NCBI RefSeq assembly: GCF_900112255.1
Contig: NZ_FOLE01000003.1
Coordinates: 1 to 64,000 of the forward strand
Length of the DNA: 64,000 nt
Origin: Flexibacter flexilis DSM 6793
GTDB lineage: Bacteria; Bacteroidota; Bacteroidia; Cytophagales; Flexibacteraceae
Reading direction: 5' to 3'
How positions within the stretch are numbered: the stretch's first letter is position 1; the number at the start of each line of letters is the position of its first letter. The notes beneath the pieces were generated by a model. That model saw only the letters and a list, made by a program, of their open reading frames with translations. It searched no databases and had not been told where the DNA came from. The position numbers were made by a program, and so were the translations under genes. Below are positions 8,753-61,409 of this stretch, one piece after another.

Positions 8753-10156
8753 TTAAACGTGTAATGCGCGGTTGTCGGTTGCGGCCAAACACGCTTCTTT
8801 GAGGGCTTCCGTAAACGTTGGGTGCGCGTGCGACATACGCGAAACGTCTTCGGCAGAAGCTCTAAACTCCATGGCTACAACGGCTTCCGCTATCATGTCC
8901 GCAGCACGTGGCCCGATGATATGAACACCCAAAATTTCGTCTGTGTTTTTGTCGGCCAACACTTTCACCAAGCCGTCTAAGTCCATGCTCGCGCGTGCAC
9001 GACCCAAAGCCTTGAACGGGAACGAACCTGTTTTGTACGCACGGCCTTCAGCTTTCAACGCTTCTTCCGTTGCACCCACAGAGGCCACTTCTGGCCACGT
9101 ATAAACTACACCAGGGATAAGGTTGTAGTTGATGTGTGGTTTTTGGCCTGCAATTGTTTCAGCCACCAAAACGCCTTCTTCTTCCGCTTTGTGCGCAAGC
9201 ATCGCGCCGCGAACTACGTCGCCGATAGCGTAAATATGTGGCACGTTAGTTTGCAAATGACCGTTTACTTTAATGCGGCCTCTTTCTTCCATTTCCACGC
9301 CTGCATTTTCCAAAGCCAAACCTTTCGTGTAAGGGCTGCGGCCAATCGACACCAAGCAGTAATCACCCGAAAGTGTCACAGGTTTGCCGTTTTCGTCGTC
9401 GGCTGTTACTTGCACCGTATCGCCCAAGTTTTCTACTTTGGTTACTTTATGTTTGAAATAAAACTCGGTGTTGAGTTTTTTCATTACTTTCAAAAGCTCT
9501 TTGCCCATCGTGCCGTCCATGGTTGGGATAAGCGAACCTGCAAATTCCACGAACGAAACTTTTGCACCCAAACGCGCATAAACCGAACCCAATTCTACGC
9601 CGATTACACCGCCGCCAATCACGATAAGGTGTTTCGGTACTTCTTTGAGTTCGAGGGCTTCCGTAGAAGTAATCACGCGTGTTTTATCCACAGGAATAAA
9701 TGGCAATACCGTTGGTTTTGAACCAGTGGCGATAATGACATTTTTCGCGCCGATGTCTTCGGTTGTGCCATCTACTTTCGTGATGCGCACCGTATTTTTA
9801 TCTACAAACGAACCGATGCCGTTGTATTCAGCTACTTTATTTTTTTTCATCAAAAAGCGAATACCACCCGAAGTTTGTTGTACTACGTCGGCCTTACGCT
9901 TAATCATTTGCGCCAAATTTACTTTTGGTGCTTCGATTTCGATACCGTGTTCTTTGAAAGAATGCGCGGCATTGTAGAAATGTTCTGATGAATCTAATAG
10001 TGCTTTAGAAGGAATACAACCCACATTCAGGCAAGTGCCGCCCAAAGTGTTGTATTTCTCGATAATAGCAGTCTGCAAACCAAGTTGGGCGCAGCGAATA
10101 GCGGCCACATAGCCACCTGGGCCAGAGCCAATTATTACTACATCATACGTTGTCAT
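8753..10156 (-). CDS. lpdA: Dihydrolipoyl dehydrogenase (E3)
   Basis: A 467-residue cytosolic FAD enzyme that reoxidises dihydrolipoamide with NAD+ in the pyruvate and 2-oxoglutarate dehydrogenase complexes and the glycine cleavage system. It shows the FAD motif GSGPGG near residue 11, the redox-active disulfide in GGTCLNVGCIPSK near 39-51, the NAD motif GGGVIGVELG near 180, the second FAD motif YAIGDV near 311, and the C-terminal dimer/active-site segment HAHPTFTEA with the His-Glu pair. No E1 or E2 gene lies next to it. It starts with ATG and is transcribed away from the 21-bp repeat array. Confidence 0.97.
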   Translation of the reverse strand: MTTYDVVIIGSGPGGYVAAIRCAQLGLQTAIIEKYNTLGGTCLNVGCIPSKALLDSSEHFYNAAHSFKEHGIEIEAPKVNLAQMIKRKADVVQQTSGGIRFLMKKNKVAEYNGIGSFVDKNTVRITKVDGTTEDIGAKNVIIATGSKPTVLPFIPVDKTRVITSTEALELKEVPKHLIVIGGGVIGVELGSVYARLGAKVSFVEFAGSLIPTMDGTMGKELLKVMKKLNTEFYFKHKVTKVENLGDTVQVTADDENGKPVTLSGDYCLVSIGRSPYTKGLALENAGVEMEERGRIKVNGHLQTNVPHIYAIGDVVRGAMLAHKAEEEGVLVAETIAGQKPHINYNLIPGVVYTWPEVASVGATEEALKAEGRAYKTGSFPFKALGRARASMDLDGLVKVLADKNTDEILGVHIIGPRAADMIAEAVVAMEFRASAEDVSRMSHAHPTFTEALKEACLAATDNRALHV

Positions 10157-10234
10157 GGAAACAATATGGTTTTAATTGAAATTTATATTGTTGTTTGTTA
10201 AAGAATGTACATTAGTTGTCGTTCTCGTCGTGGG

Positions 10235-10242
10235 CAAATGTA
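10235..10242 (-). promoter_or_regulatory. Possible lpdA -7 element
   Basis: CAAATGTA on the plus strand reads TACATTTG on the minus strand, fitting TAnnTTTG. The -33 element is not convincing. It would give a leader of about 70 nt. Confidence 0.35.
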
Positions 10243-10350
10243 ACAATTGCCAGTTAAGAAAAGAATGTAAAAAGTCAGTTCTGTAAATTTATCAACAGCA
10301 AATCTTTCTTTTAGGCTTTGTTTAATTAATTTTGAAAGTACACGACCTCT

Positions 10351-10366
10351 ATTATCAGTTGATAAT
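10351..10366. promoter_or_regulatory. Short palindrome, candidate operator
   Basis: ATTATCA-GT-TGATAAT is a perfect 7-bp inverted repeat with a 2-bp spacer, 66 bases before the repeat array and ~195 upstream of lpdA. Function unknown; it could be chance in AT-rich DNA. Confidence 0.25.
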
Positions 10367-10431
10367 CTTGTTCAGGTGGCTTATTGGTAATGCCATCTAA
10401 AATGTTGAATTATCTATTATCTGGGTCAGTA

Positions 10432-10769
10432 CATACGCACGGTTGTGCTTATGTATAAGTACTTGCAACGAACAATTAGGCTATTGTATCGAACAATCTA
10501 ACACTTGCAACGAACAATTAGACTATTGTATCGAACAATCTAACACTTGCAACGAACAATCAGACTATTGTATCGAACAATCTAACACTTGCAACGAACA
10601 ATTAGACTATTGTATCGAACAATCTAACACTTGCAACGAACAATCAGACTATTGTATCAAACAATCTAACACTTGCAACGAACAATTAGACTATTGTATC
10701 GAACAATCTGACACTTGCAACGAACAATCAGACTATTGTATCAGTAAATACGCACGGTAGTGCGCATAT
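10432..10769. repeat. 21/42-bp-phased tandem array with palindromic caps (array 1)
   Basis: Seven copies of a 42-bp unit begin at 10461, 10503, 10545, 10587, 10629, 10671 and 10713. Each unit is two related 21-bp halves that share CGAACAAT, and the CG recurs every 21 bases from 10469 with only two late changes to CA. No insertions or deletions break the phase. The array is bracketed by imperfect hairpins: CATACGCAC/GTGCTTATG at 10432-10453 and AATACGCAC/GTGCGCAT at 10747-10767, each with a 4-base loop starting GGT. It is contiguous and has no unique spacers, so it is not CRISPR. On the minus strand the core reads TTGTTCG. Confidence 0.95.
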
Positions 10770-10846
10770 TCTAAGGCTTGTAGCTGTATGTAAACCATAG
10801 CGATGTATATTGTTTACAAATAACTTAACAATAAGGCTTCGTAAAC

Positions 10847-10879
10847 TTGTCTTTCTTTCCCAAATACCTATTATTTTTG
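10847..10879 (+). promoter_or_regulatory. Promoter of the mrdA-rodA-murF-dut-gldC operon
   Basis: TTG at 10847-10849, a 22-base spacer and TATTTTTG at 10872-10879 match the Bacteroidota promoter (TTG / TAnnTTTG). The mrdA ATG lies 37 bases past the -7 element. Confidence 0.6.
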
Positions 10880-10916
10880 CTCCCCCAACAACAAAATGAA
10901 CTTGCTAACCTAACGC

Positions 10917-12878
10917 ATGCTTACAGAAGGTAGAAAATATATAGTTCAGGGCGTGTTCGTCTTGGTGGGCTTGGTGTTTCTGATAAAATTGTTTTTTCTA
11001 CAAATCATCGACGACACATACAAGCAAGCCGCAGACGAAAACGCACTGCAAAAAATGGTGGATTATCCGTACAGAGGCCTCATTTATGACCGCGACGGAA
11101 AGATTATGGTTTATAACGTTCCCGTGTACGACGTGATGGTGACCCCGCGCGAAGTGCGCAAGGATATGGATACGCTTGGTTTTTGTAACTTGCTCAAAAT
11201 CACGAAAGAGGAATACATAAAATATATGCGTTCGGCCAAGATACATTCGAGCGTAAAGCCTACGCCGTTTATTAAGCAGCTTTCGCACACGGATTTTGCC
11301 AGCATCCAAGACCAACTCGTGGATTACCCTGGCTTTTTCATTATGCCGCGCACGGTGCGTTCGTATCCCAATCACTCGATGGCCAGTGCGTTGGGGTATA
11401 TTGGCGAAATTAGCCGCCGCCGCCTCGAACGCGACACGACGGGTTACTACAAAATCGGGGATTATATCGGTATCAGTGGTTTGGAAGGCGAATACGAATC
11501 GTATTTGCGTGGCCGCAAAGGTGTAAAATATATGCTCGTGGACGTGCACGGTATCCAAAAAGGTTCGTTTAAAGATGGTGCTTTCGACACGACAGCCGTG
11601 CGAGGCGAAAATCTTTATTCGTCCATTGATTTGGAGCTACAAAAATATTGCGAAAAGGTAATGCAAAATAAAGCGGGCAGTATCGTGGCCATTGAGCCTT
11701 CTACGGGTGAAATTTTGGCCTTTGTTTCTGCGCCAACCTACGACCCCGAACTACTGACGGCACGCGAATTTCCAAAGAATTATTCCCGACTCCAGAAAGA
11801 CAGCATGAAACCCCTGTTCAACAGGCCGCTCATGGCTCCCTATCCTCCAGGTTCGATTTTCAAAACCATTCAGGCACTTATCGGTTTGCAAGAAGGTGTC
11901 ATTGACTCCACGACCATTTATCCGTGTGTGCAAAACGTGGTGCATTGCCACCCGCACCCTTCGCCTTGCAATTTGCGTCAATCGCTGCAATGGTCTTGCA
12001 ACCCGTATTATTTGAATGTTTATCGCCGTATTATTAACCAAAACAGAAGCCGTAACACATTCACAGACACGCGTTTGGGTTATGAAAAATGGCGCGAATA
12101 TGTCGAAAGTTTCGGCTTAGGCCAACAACTTGGCGTAGATTTGCCCAACGAGAAAAAAGGTATTTTGCGCAAAGCCACGTATTTCGACCGCGTGTATGGC
12201 GAAAATCGTTGGAAATATTCAAACCTCTATTCGATGAGTATCGGGCAAGGCGAAATCGGGATGAATCCATTGCAAATGGCGAATTTGGCGGCCATTTTGG
12301 CCAACAGAGGTTTTTATTATACGCCGCATTTTATCCGAAAAATGGGGGATAATGGCAAAATCGCACCCGAATTTACCCAACGCCACACCACCAAAGTAGA
12401 GCCTAAGTATTTTGATGTAATCGCCAACGGCATGATGGACGCGGTGCGCAACGGTACGATTTGGTCAAAGGCACGCATGCAAAGCGTCGTAATTTGCGGC
12501 AAAACGGGTACGGCTCAAAACCCGCAAGGGGACGACCACTCCGTATTCATTGGTTTTGCACCAAAAGACAATCCTAAAATTGCAGTAGCTGTTTTTGTGG
12601 AAAATGCGGGTTTCGGGGGCTTTGTGGCTGCTCCAATCGGTTCTTTGGTTATCGAAAAATACCTGAAAGACACGATTATACGCAAGAACTTGGACATTCA
12701 CATGACAGGCCAAGACTTCATTCACCCCAAAAAGCCTAAAGTGGCAACCGTGCAAGACGCTAATAAAACGAAAAGCGAAAAAACGGCTACAAATTCAAAT
12801 AACATTCCTCTAATTACAAATCCTATCGGCAACAATGGCGGAACTCAGACGAGAAGAACGGATAGCACAGAATATTGA
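10917..12878 (+). CDS. mrdA: Penicillin-binding protein 2 (peptidoglycan transpeptidase)
   Basis: A 653-residue inner-membrane protein that crosslinks peptidoglycan during side-wall elongation, paired with RodA. One N-terminal membrane anchor (~residues 9-29) is followed by the dimerisation domain (YRGLIYDRDGKIMVYN, MASALGYIGEI) and a transpeptidase domain with catalytic SIFK (Ser313, Lys316), SCN (Ser360) and KTGTA (Lys529). The C-terminal ~60 residues are charged and Asn/Thr-rich, probably disordered. The ATG at 10917 starts close behind a good promoter. The last 44 bases overlap rodA, implying coupled translation. Confidence 0.97.
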   Translation: MLTEGRKYIVQGVFVLVGLVFLIKLFFLQIIDDTYKQAADENALQKMVDYPYRGLIYDRDGKIMVYNVPVYDVMVTPREVRKDMDTLGFCNLLKITKEEYIKYMRSAKIHSSVKPTPFIKQLSHTDFASIQDQLVDYPGFFIMPRTVRSYPNHSMASALGYIGEISRRRLERDTTGYYKIGDYIGISGLEGEYESYLRGRKGVKYMLVDVHGIQKGSFKDGAFDTTAVRGENLYSSIDLELQKYCEKVMQNKAGSIVAIEPSTGEILAFVSAPTYDPELLTAREFPKNYSRLQKDSMKPLFNRPLMAPYPPGSIFKTIQALIGLQEGVIDSTTIYPCVQNVVHCHPHPSPCNLRQSLQWSCNPYYLNVYRRIINQNRSRNTFTDTRLGYEKWREYVESFGLGQQLGVDLPNEKKGILRKATYFDRVYGENRWKYSNLYSMSIGQGEIGMNPLQMANLAAILANRGFYYTPHFIRKMGDNGKIAPEFTQRHTTKVEPKYFDVIANGMMDAVRNGTIWSKARMQSVVICGKTGTAQNPQGDDHSVFIGFAPKDNPKIAVAVFVENAGFGGFVAAPIGSLVIEKYLKDTIIRKNLDIHMTGQDFIHPKKPKVATVQDANKTKSEKTATNSNNIPLITNPIGNNGGTQTRRTDSTEY

Positions 12879-34805: not shown

Positions 34806-34855
34806 AAATCAATTCGATAGATACGCACGGCCGTGCGTATCTATCGAATTGATTT
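34806..34855. repeat. 50-bp perfect palindrome, likely bidirectional terminator
   Basis: The 25 bases at 34806-34830 are exactly complementary to 34831-34855, with no spacer; the centre is ATACGCACGG/CCGTGCGTAT. It lies between two convergent genes and ends within the lactonase stop, so it can fold on both transcripts as a terminator, although T-runs are short. The centre resembles the caps of the repeat array at 10432-10769. Confidence 0.85.
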
Positions 34856-43000: not shown

Positions 43001-43273
43001 CCAACCTGTTTTTAATTTAAAACGAATAACTTTTAATTTCACACGGGTAATTCTTAAGTTAGAACGAATAACTTTTAAGTTAGCACGGGTAGTTTTTAAT
43101 TTAAAACGAATAACTTTTAAGTTAGCACGGGTAGTTTTTAATTTAAAATGAATAACTTTTAAGTTAGCACGGGTAATTCTTAAGTTAGAACGAATAACTT
43201 TTAAGTTTACACGAGTAATTTTTAAGTTAGAACGAGTAACTTTTAATTTAACACGGGTTAATTGGGTAAACAA
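43001..43273. repeat. 21-bp-phased tandem array (array 2)
   Basis: ACG opens units at 43022, 43043, 43064, 43085, 43106, 43127, 43148 (ATG), 43169, 43190, 43211, 43232 and 43253: twelve units exactly 21 bp apart, plus one degenerate unit on the left (43001). Units alternate between types ACGAATAACTTTTAA and ACGGGTAGTTTTTAA, giving a looser 42-bp order. On the minus strand the core is AAAARTTAYYCGT, which includes the same AAAAGTTATTCGT seen in array 3. It is AT-rich, with no insertion or deletion. Confidence 0.95.
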
Positions 43274-61241: not shown

Positions 61242-61409
61242 CGTGTGAAAGTAAAAGTTATTCGTGCGTAATACAAAATTATTCGTTTATACTAAAAAAT
61301 TAACCGTGTAAAAATAAAAGTTACTCGTGTATAATACAAAATTACTCGTTTATACTAAAAAATTAACCGTGTGAAAGTAAAAGTTATTCGTGCGTAATAC
61401 AAAATTATT
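61242..61409. repeat. 21-bp-phased tandem array (array 3)
   Basis: CG opens units at 61242, 61263, 61284, 61305, 61326, 61347, 61368 and 61389: eight units exactly 21 bp apart. Three unit types recur in the order A B C A' B' C A B, a 63-bp higher order. Cores read TTATTCG, TTACTCG or TTAACCG; AAAAGTTATTCGT, shared with array 2, occurs here (61253-61265 and near the right end). No insertion or deletion. Confidence 0.95.

What the first reader, a model, noticed from the sequence alone, without database searches (positions are those of the whole stretch)
10432..10769. Palindrome-capped array of 42-bp units built on a strict 21-bp phase
Seven 42-bp copies, each made of two related 21-bp halves, run without a single insertion or deletion from 10461. 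A CG occurs at 10469 and every 21 bases after (two late units changed to CA). Both ends carry near-matching hairpins (CATACGCAC...GTGCTTATG and AATACGCAC...GTGCGCAT) with GGTN loops. The caps make it look like a defined element with borders rather than a random slippage tract. It sits between the divergent lpdA and mrdA promoters. 21 bp is two helical turns, so a protein bound at each unit would face one side of the DNA.
Basis: partly seen in the sequence, partly recalled or inferred. Interest (0 to 1): 0.85.

Follow-up and report, generated by a model that had tools for sequence, protein, structure and literature searches.

The report
Hairpin-bordered arrays of 21-base repeats
In this Bacteroidota-type bacterium, short non-coding DNA repeats are laid out on a strict 21-base grid and are often bordered by a shared hairpin sequence, which suggests a defined element rather than random stuttering, though its function is untested.

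Summary
Window 10461-10742 is an indel-free 42-bp array (6.7 copies, two 21-bp halves) with related imperfect palindromes at 10432-10453 and 10747-10768. It is not alone: 2.83 of 4.25 Mb of the genome gave 23 arrays judged non-coding with periods that are multiples of 21, in several unrelated sequences. The cap belongs to a dispersed palindrome family (consensus GTAGATACGCAC-N4-GTGCGTATCTAC), found in 9 of 46 array flanks against 0.03 expected. Palindrome-to-palindrome distances across arrays are exact multiples of 21 bp in 7 of 9 intervals, or 5 of 7 once two trivially periodic ones are removed. Three dispersed sister arrays are alike from the cap inwards and unrelated outside it; a fourth, short sister has no cap. 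Solitary palindromes lie between convergent ORFs (13 of 14), capped arrays do not (1 of 9). Closest known: constant-size bacterial satellites and REP palindromes; the combination and the shared register look new. Best explanation: a dispersed, hairpin-bordered satellite growing in 21-bp steps, perhaps held in helical phase by a protein. The protein is inference only.

The parts
10432..10453 (.). left cap, imperfect palindrome of hairpin family A
   Evidence: found at E 0.04 by a covariance model built only from 12 solitary copies
10461..10742 (+). 42-bp tandem array of two 21-bp half-units, CG lattice at 10469+21k, judged non-coding
10747..10768 (.). right cap, imperfect palindrome of hairpin family A, centre 315.0 bp from the left cap centre
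   Evidence: E 0.02 with the same model
34820..34841 (.). solitary perfect copy of hairpin A, between convergent ORFs
43009..43263 (+). second array of the window, 42/21 bp, no hairpin A in its flanks
61242..61409 (-). third array of the window, 63/21 bp, same superfamily as 43009 and C1:820731, no hairpin A in its flanks

Best explanation
A dispersed non-coding element: a REP-like palindrome as border, followed (in a few copies also closed) by an array of 21-bp units. Shown by sequence: the palindrome is the edge of likeness between three dispersed sister arrays and stands in one register to their units; arrays of unrelated sequence share the 21-bp step and the palindrome; substitutions are many and indels nearly absent in the pure arrays. 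Inferred: border and first units were copied to new intergenic places as one piece; arrays then grew and shrank by slippage or unequal exchange in whole 21-bp steps; and the two-helical-turn phase is kept because a protein binds unit after unit on one face of the DNA, as a local scaffold or insulator. No such protein is identified.
For: TRF rows with score >=100 peak at periods 21, 42 and 63 (13, 9 and 6 rows, some overlapping, one coding). Hairpin A (<=3 of 18 mismatches) in 9 of 46 flanks, 0.03 expected from 6000 random intergenic windows; palindrome B (CCTCCCC-N2-4-GGGGAGG, <=2 of 14) in 10 of 46, 0.12 expected. A model from 12 solitary copies finds 35 places (my count of the 67 rows); 11 lie beside an array, among them one on contig C15 that was found by its hairpin first. 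Distances between successive palindromes across 21/42-bp arrays: exact multiple of 21 in 7 of 9, within 1 bp in 8 of 9; without two trivially periodic C2 intervals 5 of 7 and 6 of 7, p 1e-4 and 5e-5. Sister arrays: 1-9 of 15 matches per 15-bp block outside the cap, 7-15 at and inside it. Eighteen pure arrays: about 209 mismatches to 0 indels in TRF percentages, against 122 to 30 in 15 arrays of other period.
Against: No binding protein and no expression data. The shared register can follow from descent: if the ancestral border plus unit was a multiple of 21, growth by whole units keeps it. Seven of the nine phase intervals are of family B, whose units are related, so the p-values are too small. 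C3:265432, with hairpin A on both sides, is 4.5 bp off, and its array holds a 1-bp insertion that the TRF percentages hide. Over all 26 lattice rows the count is 361 mismatches to 40 indels, p 0.004 against the other arrays, nearly all indels from one composite array, C6:157559. Eight of 23 arrays have neither palindrome in the flanks, though three of these eight (C2:608167, C5:60100, C7) hold B inside the unit. The fourth sister, C6:147237, has no hairpin A in 3 kb.
Confidence: 0.5

Rival explanations
1. Neutral by-product: palindromes stall replication and seed slippage of the DNA next to them; arrays and caps have no function and the 21-bp step is inherited from founders.
For: Palindromes flank arrays of unrelated sequence. 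Family B units continue the sequence beside the B palindrome, and 63-bp and 84-bp units contain it. The array is absent from 97 other genomes.
Against: Does not by itself explain one step size in unrelated arrays, nor so few indels in the pure arrays while other arrays of the genome have them.
Confidence: 0.33
2. Transcribed cassette: the array makes a repetitive RNA and the caps are bidirectional terminators that separate it from neighbouring genes.
For: Solitary hairpin A copies lie between convergent ORFs, 13 of 14. The C15 cap is followed by a T run. Satellites of Bacillus coagulans are transcribed (PMC8625621 abstract; PMC8161180 section 4.1).
Against: Only 2 of 14 solitary copies have five T in a row in the 25 bases printed after them, plus strand only. 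Caps of array 1 are weak hairpins. No Rfam match up to E 1 in 10100-11000. No exact TTTG-N17-23-TAnnTTTG promoter (motif recalled) in 10156-10917.
Confidence: 0.1
3. Coding repeat: the 105-aa ORF 10443-10760 with 14-residue repeats.
For: One frame is open through the array; the period is divisible by 3.
Against: 51 open frames over 23 arrays, 61 expected from shuffled units; three arrays, including sister C6:44310, have no open frame; only 12 residues of the ORF lie outside the array.
Confidence: 0.03
4. A local regulator of lpdA and mrdA only.
For: Lies between their divergent starts, 305 bp and 175 bp away.
Against: Sister arrays lie beside other genes. In 16 mrdA loci of other records no lpdA was found at E 1e-10 in the DNA held, and TRF found no period-21 or 42 array upstream of mrdA (L200 holds no upstream DNA).
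Confidence: 0.04

Closest known systems
Constant-size non-coding bacterial satellites (Subirana and Messeguer): PMC8161180, parts 1-2 of 5, section 4.1 and passages seen; PMC6749651, abstract, one section and passages seen. A 2020 J. Bacteriol. paper on 22/44-nt repeats is recalled; the DOI I recalled for it is not held
   Same: Non-coding, one unit size (20-21 or 52 nt in Bacillus, 20-23 nt in other groups) in several sequence families of one genome, species-specific, short cores shared between units
   Different: No palindromic border or shared register in what I saw; the words palindrom, hairpin and flank do not occur in the main text of PMC8161180; in PMC6749651 palindrom occurs twice, both in the name CRISPR, and hairpin and flank not at all
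REP elements, GTAG superfamily (PMC3733652, passages seen)
   Same: Short intergenic palindrome, GTAG foot in 7 of 12 aligned solitary copies; REPs are mostly between unidirectional and convergent ORFs (passage)
   Different: About 35 places; CTAC foot also on the other side in 9 of 12; no PF01797 gene beside it
BIME and REPIN clusters (recalled; only titles and abstract starts seen)
   Same: Composite of palindromes and the DNA between them
   Different: Here most of the element is a 21-bp array, with hairpin A at the ends
Iteron arrays of plasmid origins (recalled)
   Same: Direct repeats of about two helical turns
   Different: Many chromosomal places; no match in 72,556 plasmid records

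Membership tests
Constant-size bacterial satellites | non-coding tandem arrays of one unit size | tested here: met
   non-coding judged from ORFs, not annotation
Constant-size bacterial satellites | several unrelated sequence families of one size in one genome | tested here: met
Constant-size bacterial satellites | species-specific sequence | tested here: met
   match in the own genome only, 0 of 97 others at E<=0.001; no genus mate in the set
GTAG REP elements | 20-40 bp intergenic palindrome with GTAG at one end | tested here: met
   solitary copies intergenic, 14 of 14, GTAG in 7 of 12; the caps of array 1 read GTAC and GTAA instead
GTAG REP elements | high copy number | tested here: not met
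   35 places at E<=5, my count from 67 rows; only 150 of 2044 first-look candidates were scored
GTAG REP elements | RAYT gene flanked by the same palindrome | tested here: not met
   three PF01797 hits (one broken), none with hairpin A at <=5 mismatches within 1.5 kb
CRISPR | repeats separated by unique spacers | tested here: not met
   both halves of the 42-bp unit repeat
Plasmid iteron origin | beside a rep gene, with plasmid relatives | tested here: not met
   three neighbouring proteins are lpdA-, mrdA- and RodA-like; no plasmid match
MITE | terminal inverted repeats with a target-site duplication | tested here: inconclusive
   no duplication seen by eye; not tested systematically
   solitary copies at convergent ends but 2 of 14 with a T run; array 1 between divergent ORFs; C15 cap with T run
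Protein-bound phased array | a protein that binds the units | not testable with these tools
   none

The most novel reading that the evidence does not exclude
A new kind of bacterial chromosomal element: palindrome-bordered satellites in which borders and units share one 21-bp helical grid, spread through the genome as pieces and read by an unknown protein that polymerises along one face of the DNA.
Probability: 0.27. Interest if true: 0.85.

Novelty: new variant of a known kind. Interest (0 to 1): 0.58.

Why it matters
Constant-size bacterial satellites are an open puzzle: why about 21 bp, and how do they start and spread? A REP-like palindrome as border, in one register with the units, gives a concrete handle on both: a founding site, a unit of spread and a testable helical-phase rule, with several sister arrays in one genome for comparison.

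Tried and rejected
Coding repeat: disfavoured. Uptake-signal pairs: the single arm GATACGCAC occurs 54 times against 36.3 expected, 27 of them in listed hairpins, so no strong free motif. RAYT mobilisation of hairpin A: no such gene beside it; the PF01797 gene on C5 is flanked by another palindrome. Known RNA: none. Plasmid or phage origin: no match. Relatives: array in 0 of 97 others; hairpin A at E<=0.01 in 6 of 97 others, none of the 10 of the same family, best in G063 of another family; stricter filters were used there. Literature: the eight searches listed no paper that, by title and start of abstract, is about palindrome-bordered 21-bp bacterial satellites; lists were capped (15 of 131) and only open-licence papers are held.

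Rows dropped or judged: two arrays inside long ORFs (C1:454129, C9:17928) were dropped from 25 merged arrays. C1:176094 lies in a 282-aa ORF with 168 residues outside the array; I kept it as non-coding because its sister C6:44310 has no open frame. The C7 array starts at the edge of the fetched DNA, so 45 of the 46 flanks held sequence. The 18 'pure' arrays leave out 8 of 26 rows: those with palindrome B in the unit and the pure 21-bp pieces in the same composites at C6 and C7. The control of 15 other arrays includes a tandem tRNA gene array (C1:554892). ORFs, contexts and 'intergenic' rest on a longest-ORF mask of mine, not on annotation.

Full report
The window is the first 64 kb of contig C3 of a 4.25-Mb genome in 48 contigs. 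The 16 named loci with a related mrdA, at 49-66% identity, are labelled Cytophagaceae, Spirosoma, Sporocytophaga, Cytophagales, Chitinophagaceae, Hymenobacteraceae or Bacteroidetes, so this is a Bacteroidota, probably of the order Cytophagales. I have no name for the species.

The array is as described: 42-bp units, 6.7 copies, no indels, CG on a 21-bp lattice except two CA, caps at 10432-10453 and 10747-10768. It lies between divergent lpdA-like and mrdA-like ORFs.

It belongs to a genome-wide pattern. TRF on 2.83 Mb (67% of the genome) gave rows peaking at periods 21, 42 and 63 (13, 9 and 6 rows at score >=100; rows overlap). Merging rows whose period is a multiple of 21 (score >=80) gives 25 arrays, 23 after two coding ones are dropped. 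Units fall into several unrelated families, among them ACTTGCAACGAACAATTAGAC, CATATTTCTTTTTACCCATAG, AAGGCAAAAGGTAAGTTCAGG, ATGCCGTTGCGCTAGATTTTC and TAACAGGAATTGCAGGAAGGA. Two further arrays lie in the window, at 43009-43263 and 61242-61409; the latter matches the former and C1:820731 at 71-75%.

Palindromes border many of the arrays. Hairpin A, GATACGCAC-N3-5-GTGCGTATC with up to 3 of 18 mismatches, is in 9 of 46 flanks of 75 bp (0.03 expected); palindrome B, CCTCCCC-N2-4-GGGGAGG with up to 2 of 14, in 10 of 46 (0.12 expected). At that threshold 2 of 23 arrays carry A on both sides: this one and C3:265432. With A at <=5 or B at <=2, 15 of 23 arrays have a palindrome in a flank and 8 have none; three of these 8 hold B inside the unit. 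A covariance model built from 12 solitary copies only gives 67 rows at E<=5 in the whole genome, 35 places by my count; the caps of array 1 come at E 0.02 and 0.04. Eleven of the 35 lie beside an array: ten in the 2.83 Mb and one on contig C15, where seven or so 21-bp units follow the hairpin. Two of the 35 (C8:127927, C22:3226) lie on DNA I did not read. A further hairpin, C1:797304 (3 mismatches), stands beside a weak 21-bp array (3 copies, 65% matches, score 64) that was below my threshold.

Shared register. In nine intervals in which a 21/42-bp array fills at least half of the distance between two successive palindromes of one kind, the centre distance is an exact multiple of 21 in seven and within 1 bp in eight. 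Two of these, on C2, are units of a 126-bp repeat that contains the palindrome and so are trivially periodic; without them it is five of seven and six of seven, p 1e-4 and 5e-5 against chance residues. Only two of the nine are family A: this array (315.0 = 15 x 21) and C3:265432, which is 4.5 bp off. Two pairs picked after the fact, with a degenerate second copy, also fit: C3:175347, 231.0 = 11 x 21, and C15, 189 = 9 x 21 by my reading; I give them little weight. Of 39 other successive distances 16 are exact, mainly 63-bp and 84-bp units that contain palindrome B.

Border. In array orientation the upstream ends of three sister arrays (this one, C6:44310, and C1:176094 on the minus strand), aligned on the cap centre without gaps, are not alike outside the cap (local alignment P 0.08-0.6 against 300 shuffles) and are alike inside it (P <=0.0033); the resolution is 15 bp. 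All four caps lie at the same register to the lattice CG. This is the strongest evidence that the cap is the edge of a copied piece. The right cap of array 1 matches the C1 cap exactly over the 15 bases at the cap centre and at 11 of 15 bases just outside, but not farther. The fourth sister, a stretch of about three units at C6:147237 (49 bp matched), has no hairpin A in its 3-kb locus.

Constraint. Eighteen pure 21-lattice arrays show about 209 mismatches and no indel in TRF percentages; 15 arrays with periods not divisible by 3 show about 122 and 30. A 1-bp insertion in C3:265432 is visible and lost by rounding. With the eight composite rows included the lattice count is 361 to 40 (p 0.004), nearly all indels from C6:157559.

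What the palindrome does elsewhere. Solitary copies with at most 2 mismatches lie between convergent ORFs in 13 of 14 cases, 7 of 14 within 30 bp of both ORF ends; 13.5% of intergenic bases are convergent. That is the place of a bidirectional terminator or a REP. A-capped arrays are convergent in 1 of 9, tandem in 5, divergent in 3. So the caps are kin of those hairpins but, at least for the divergent arrays, cannot end the flanking genes. The C15 cap, with a TTCG loop and a T run, does look like an intrinsic terminator, so a mixed origin is possible.

Reading. I commit to a dispersed, hairpin-bordered satellite that changes length almost only in 21-bp steps; that part rests on sequence. That the phase is held by a protein on one face of the DNA is inference, in line with the polymerising-protein idea that Subirana and Messeguer offered for constant-size satellites (PMC8161180 section 4.1). 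A neutral origin by slippage beside palindromes remains a serious rival.

Noticed in passing
window 34810-34851: A 42-base perfect palindrome around a solitary hairpin A, between convergent ORFs, folds to -20.1 kcal/mol as DNA.
   Followed up: yes
L129 (G000:C5:269491-269832): Y1 transposase domain (PF01797) with the palindrome CGCCCACGGTTTAAACCGTGGGC on both sides within 100 bp, a REPtron-like unit with its own palindrome.
   Followed up: partly
G000:C6:157559-159045 and C5:55300-55782: Composite arrays in which palindrome B plus a 21-bp unit makes 63-64-bp repeats beside pure 21-bp arrays.
   Followed up: partly
G000:C4:172253-172667: A 58-bp array of palindrome B copies that does not follow the 21-bp grid.
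   Followed up: no
G063 (same order, other family): Carries hairpin A at E 2.5e-8 while none of ten genomes of the window's own family shows it at E<=0.01.
   Followed up: no
L102 1495-1705 (G000:C15): A hairpin A with TTCG loop and T run followed by 21-bp units (GCCTCCATAAACTTCTGTATA type); found through the hairpin.
   Followed up: partly
window 43009-43263, window 61242-61409, G000:C1:820731, G000:C2:40494: Units of these four arrays without caps carry 6-9 bases of the hairpin A arm (GATACGCACGG); shuffled units reach that in 0 to 5%.
   Followed up: partly
L193 10754-11058 and L195 6619-6968: Repeats of 60-63 bp some 4 kb downstream of mrdA in two relatives; probably coding, not tested.
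   Followed up: no
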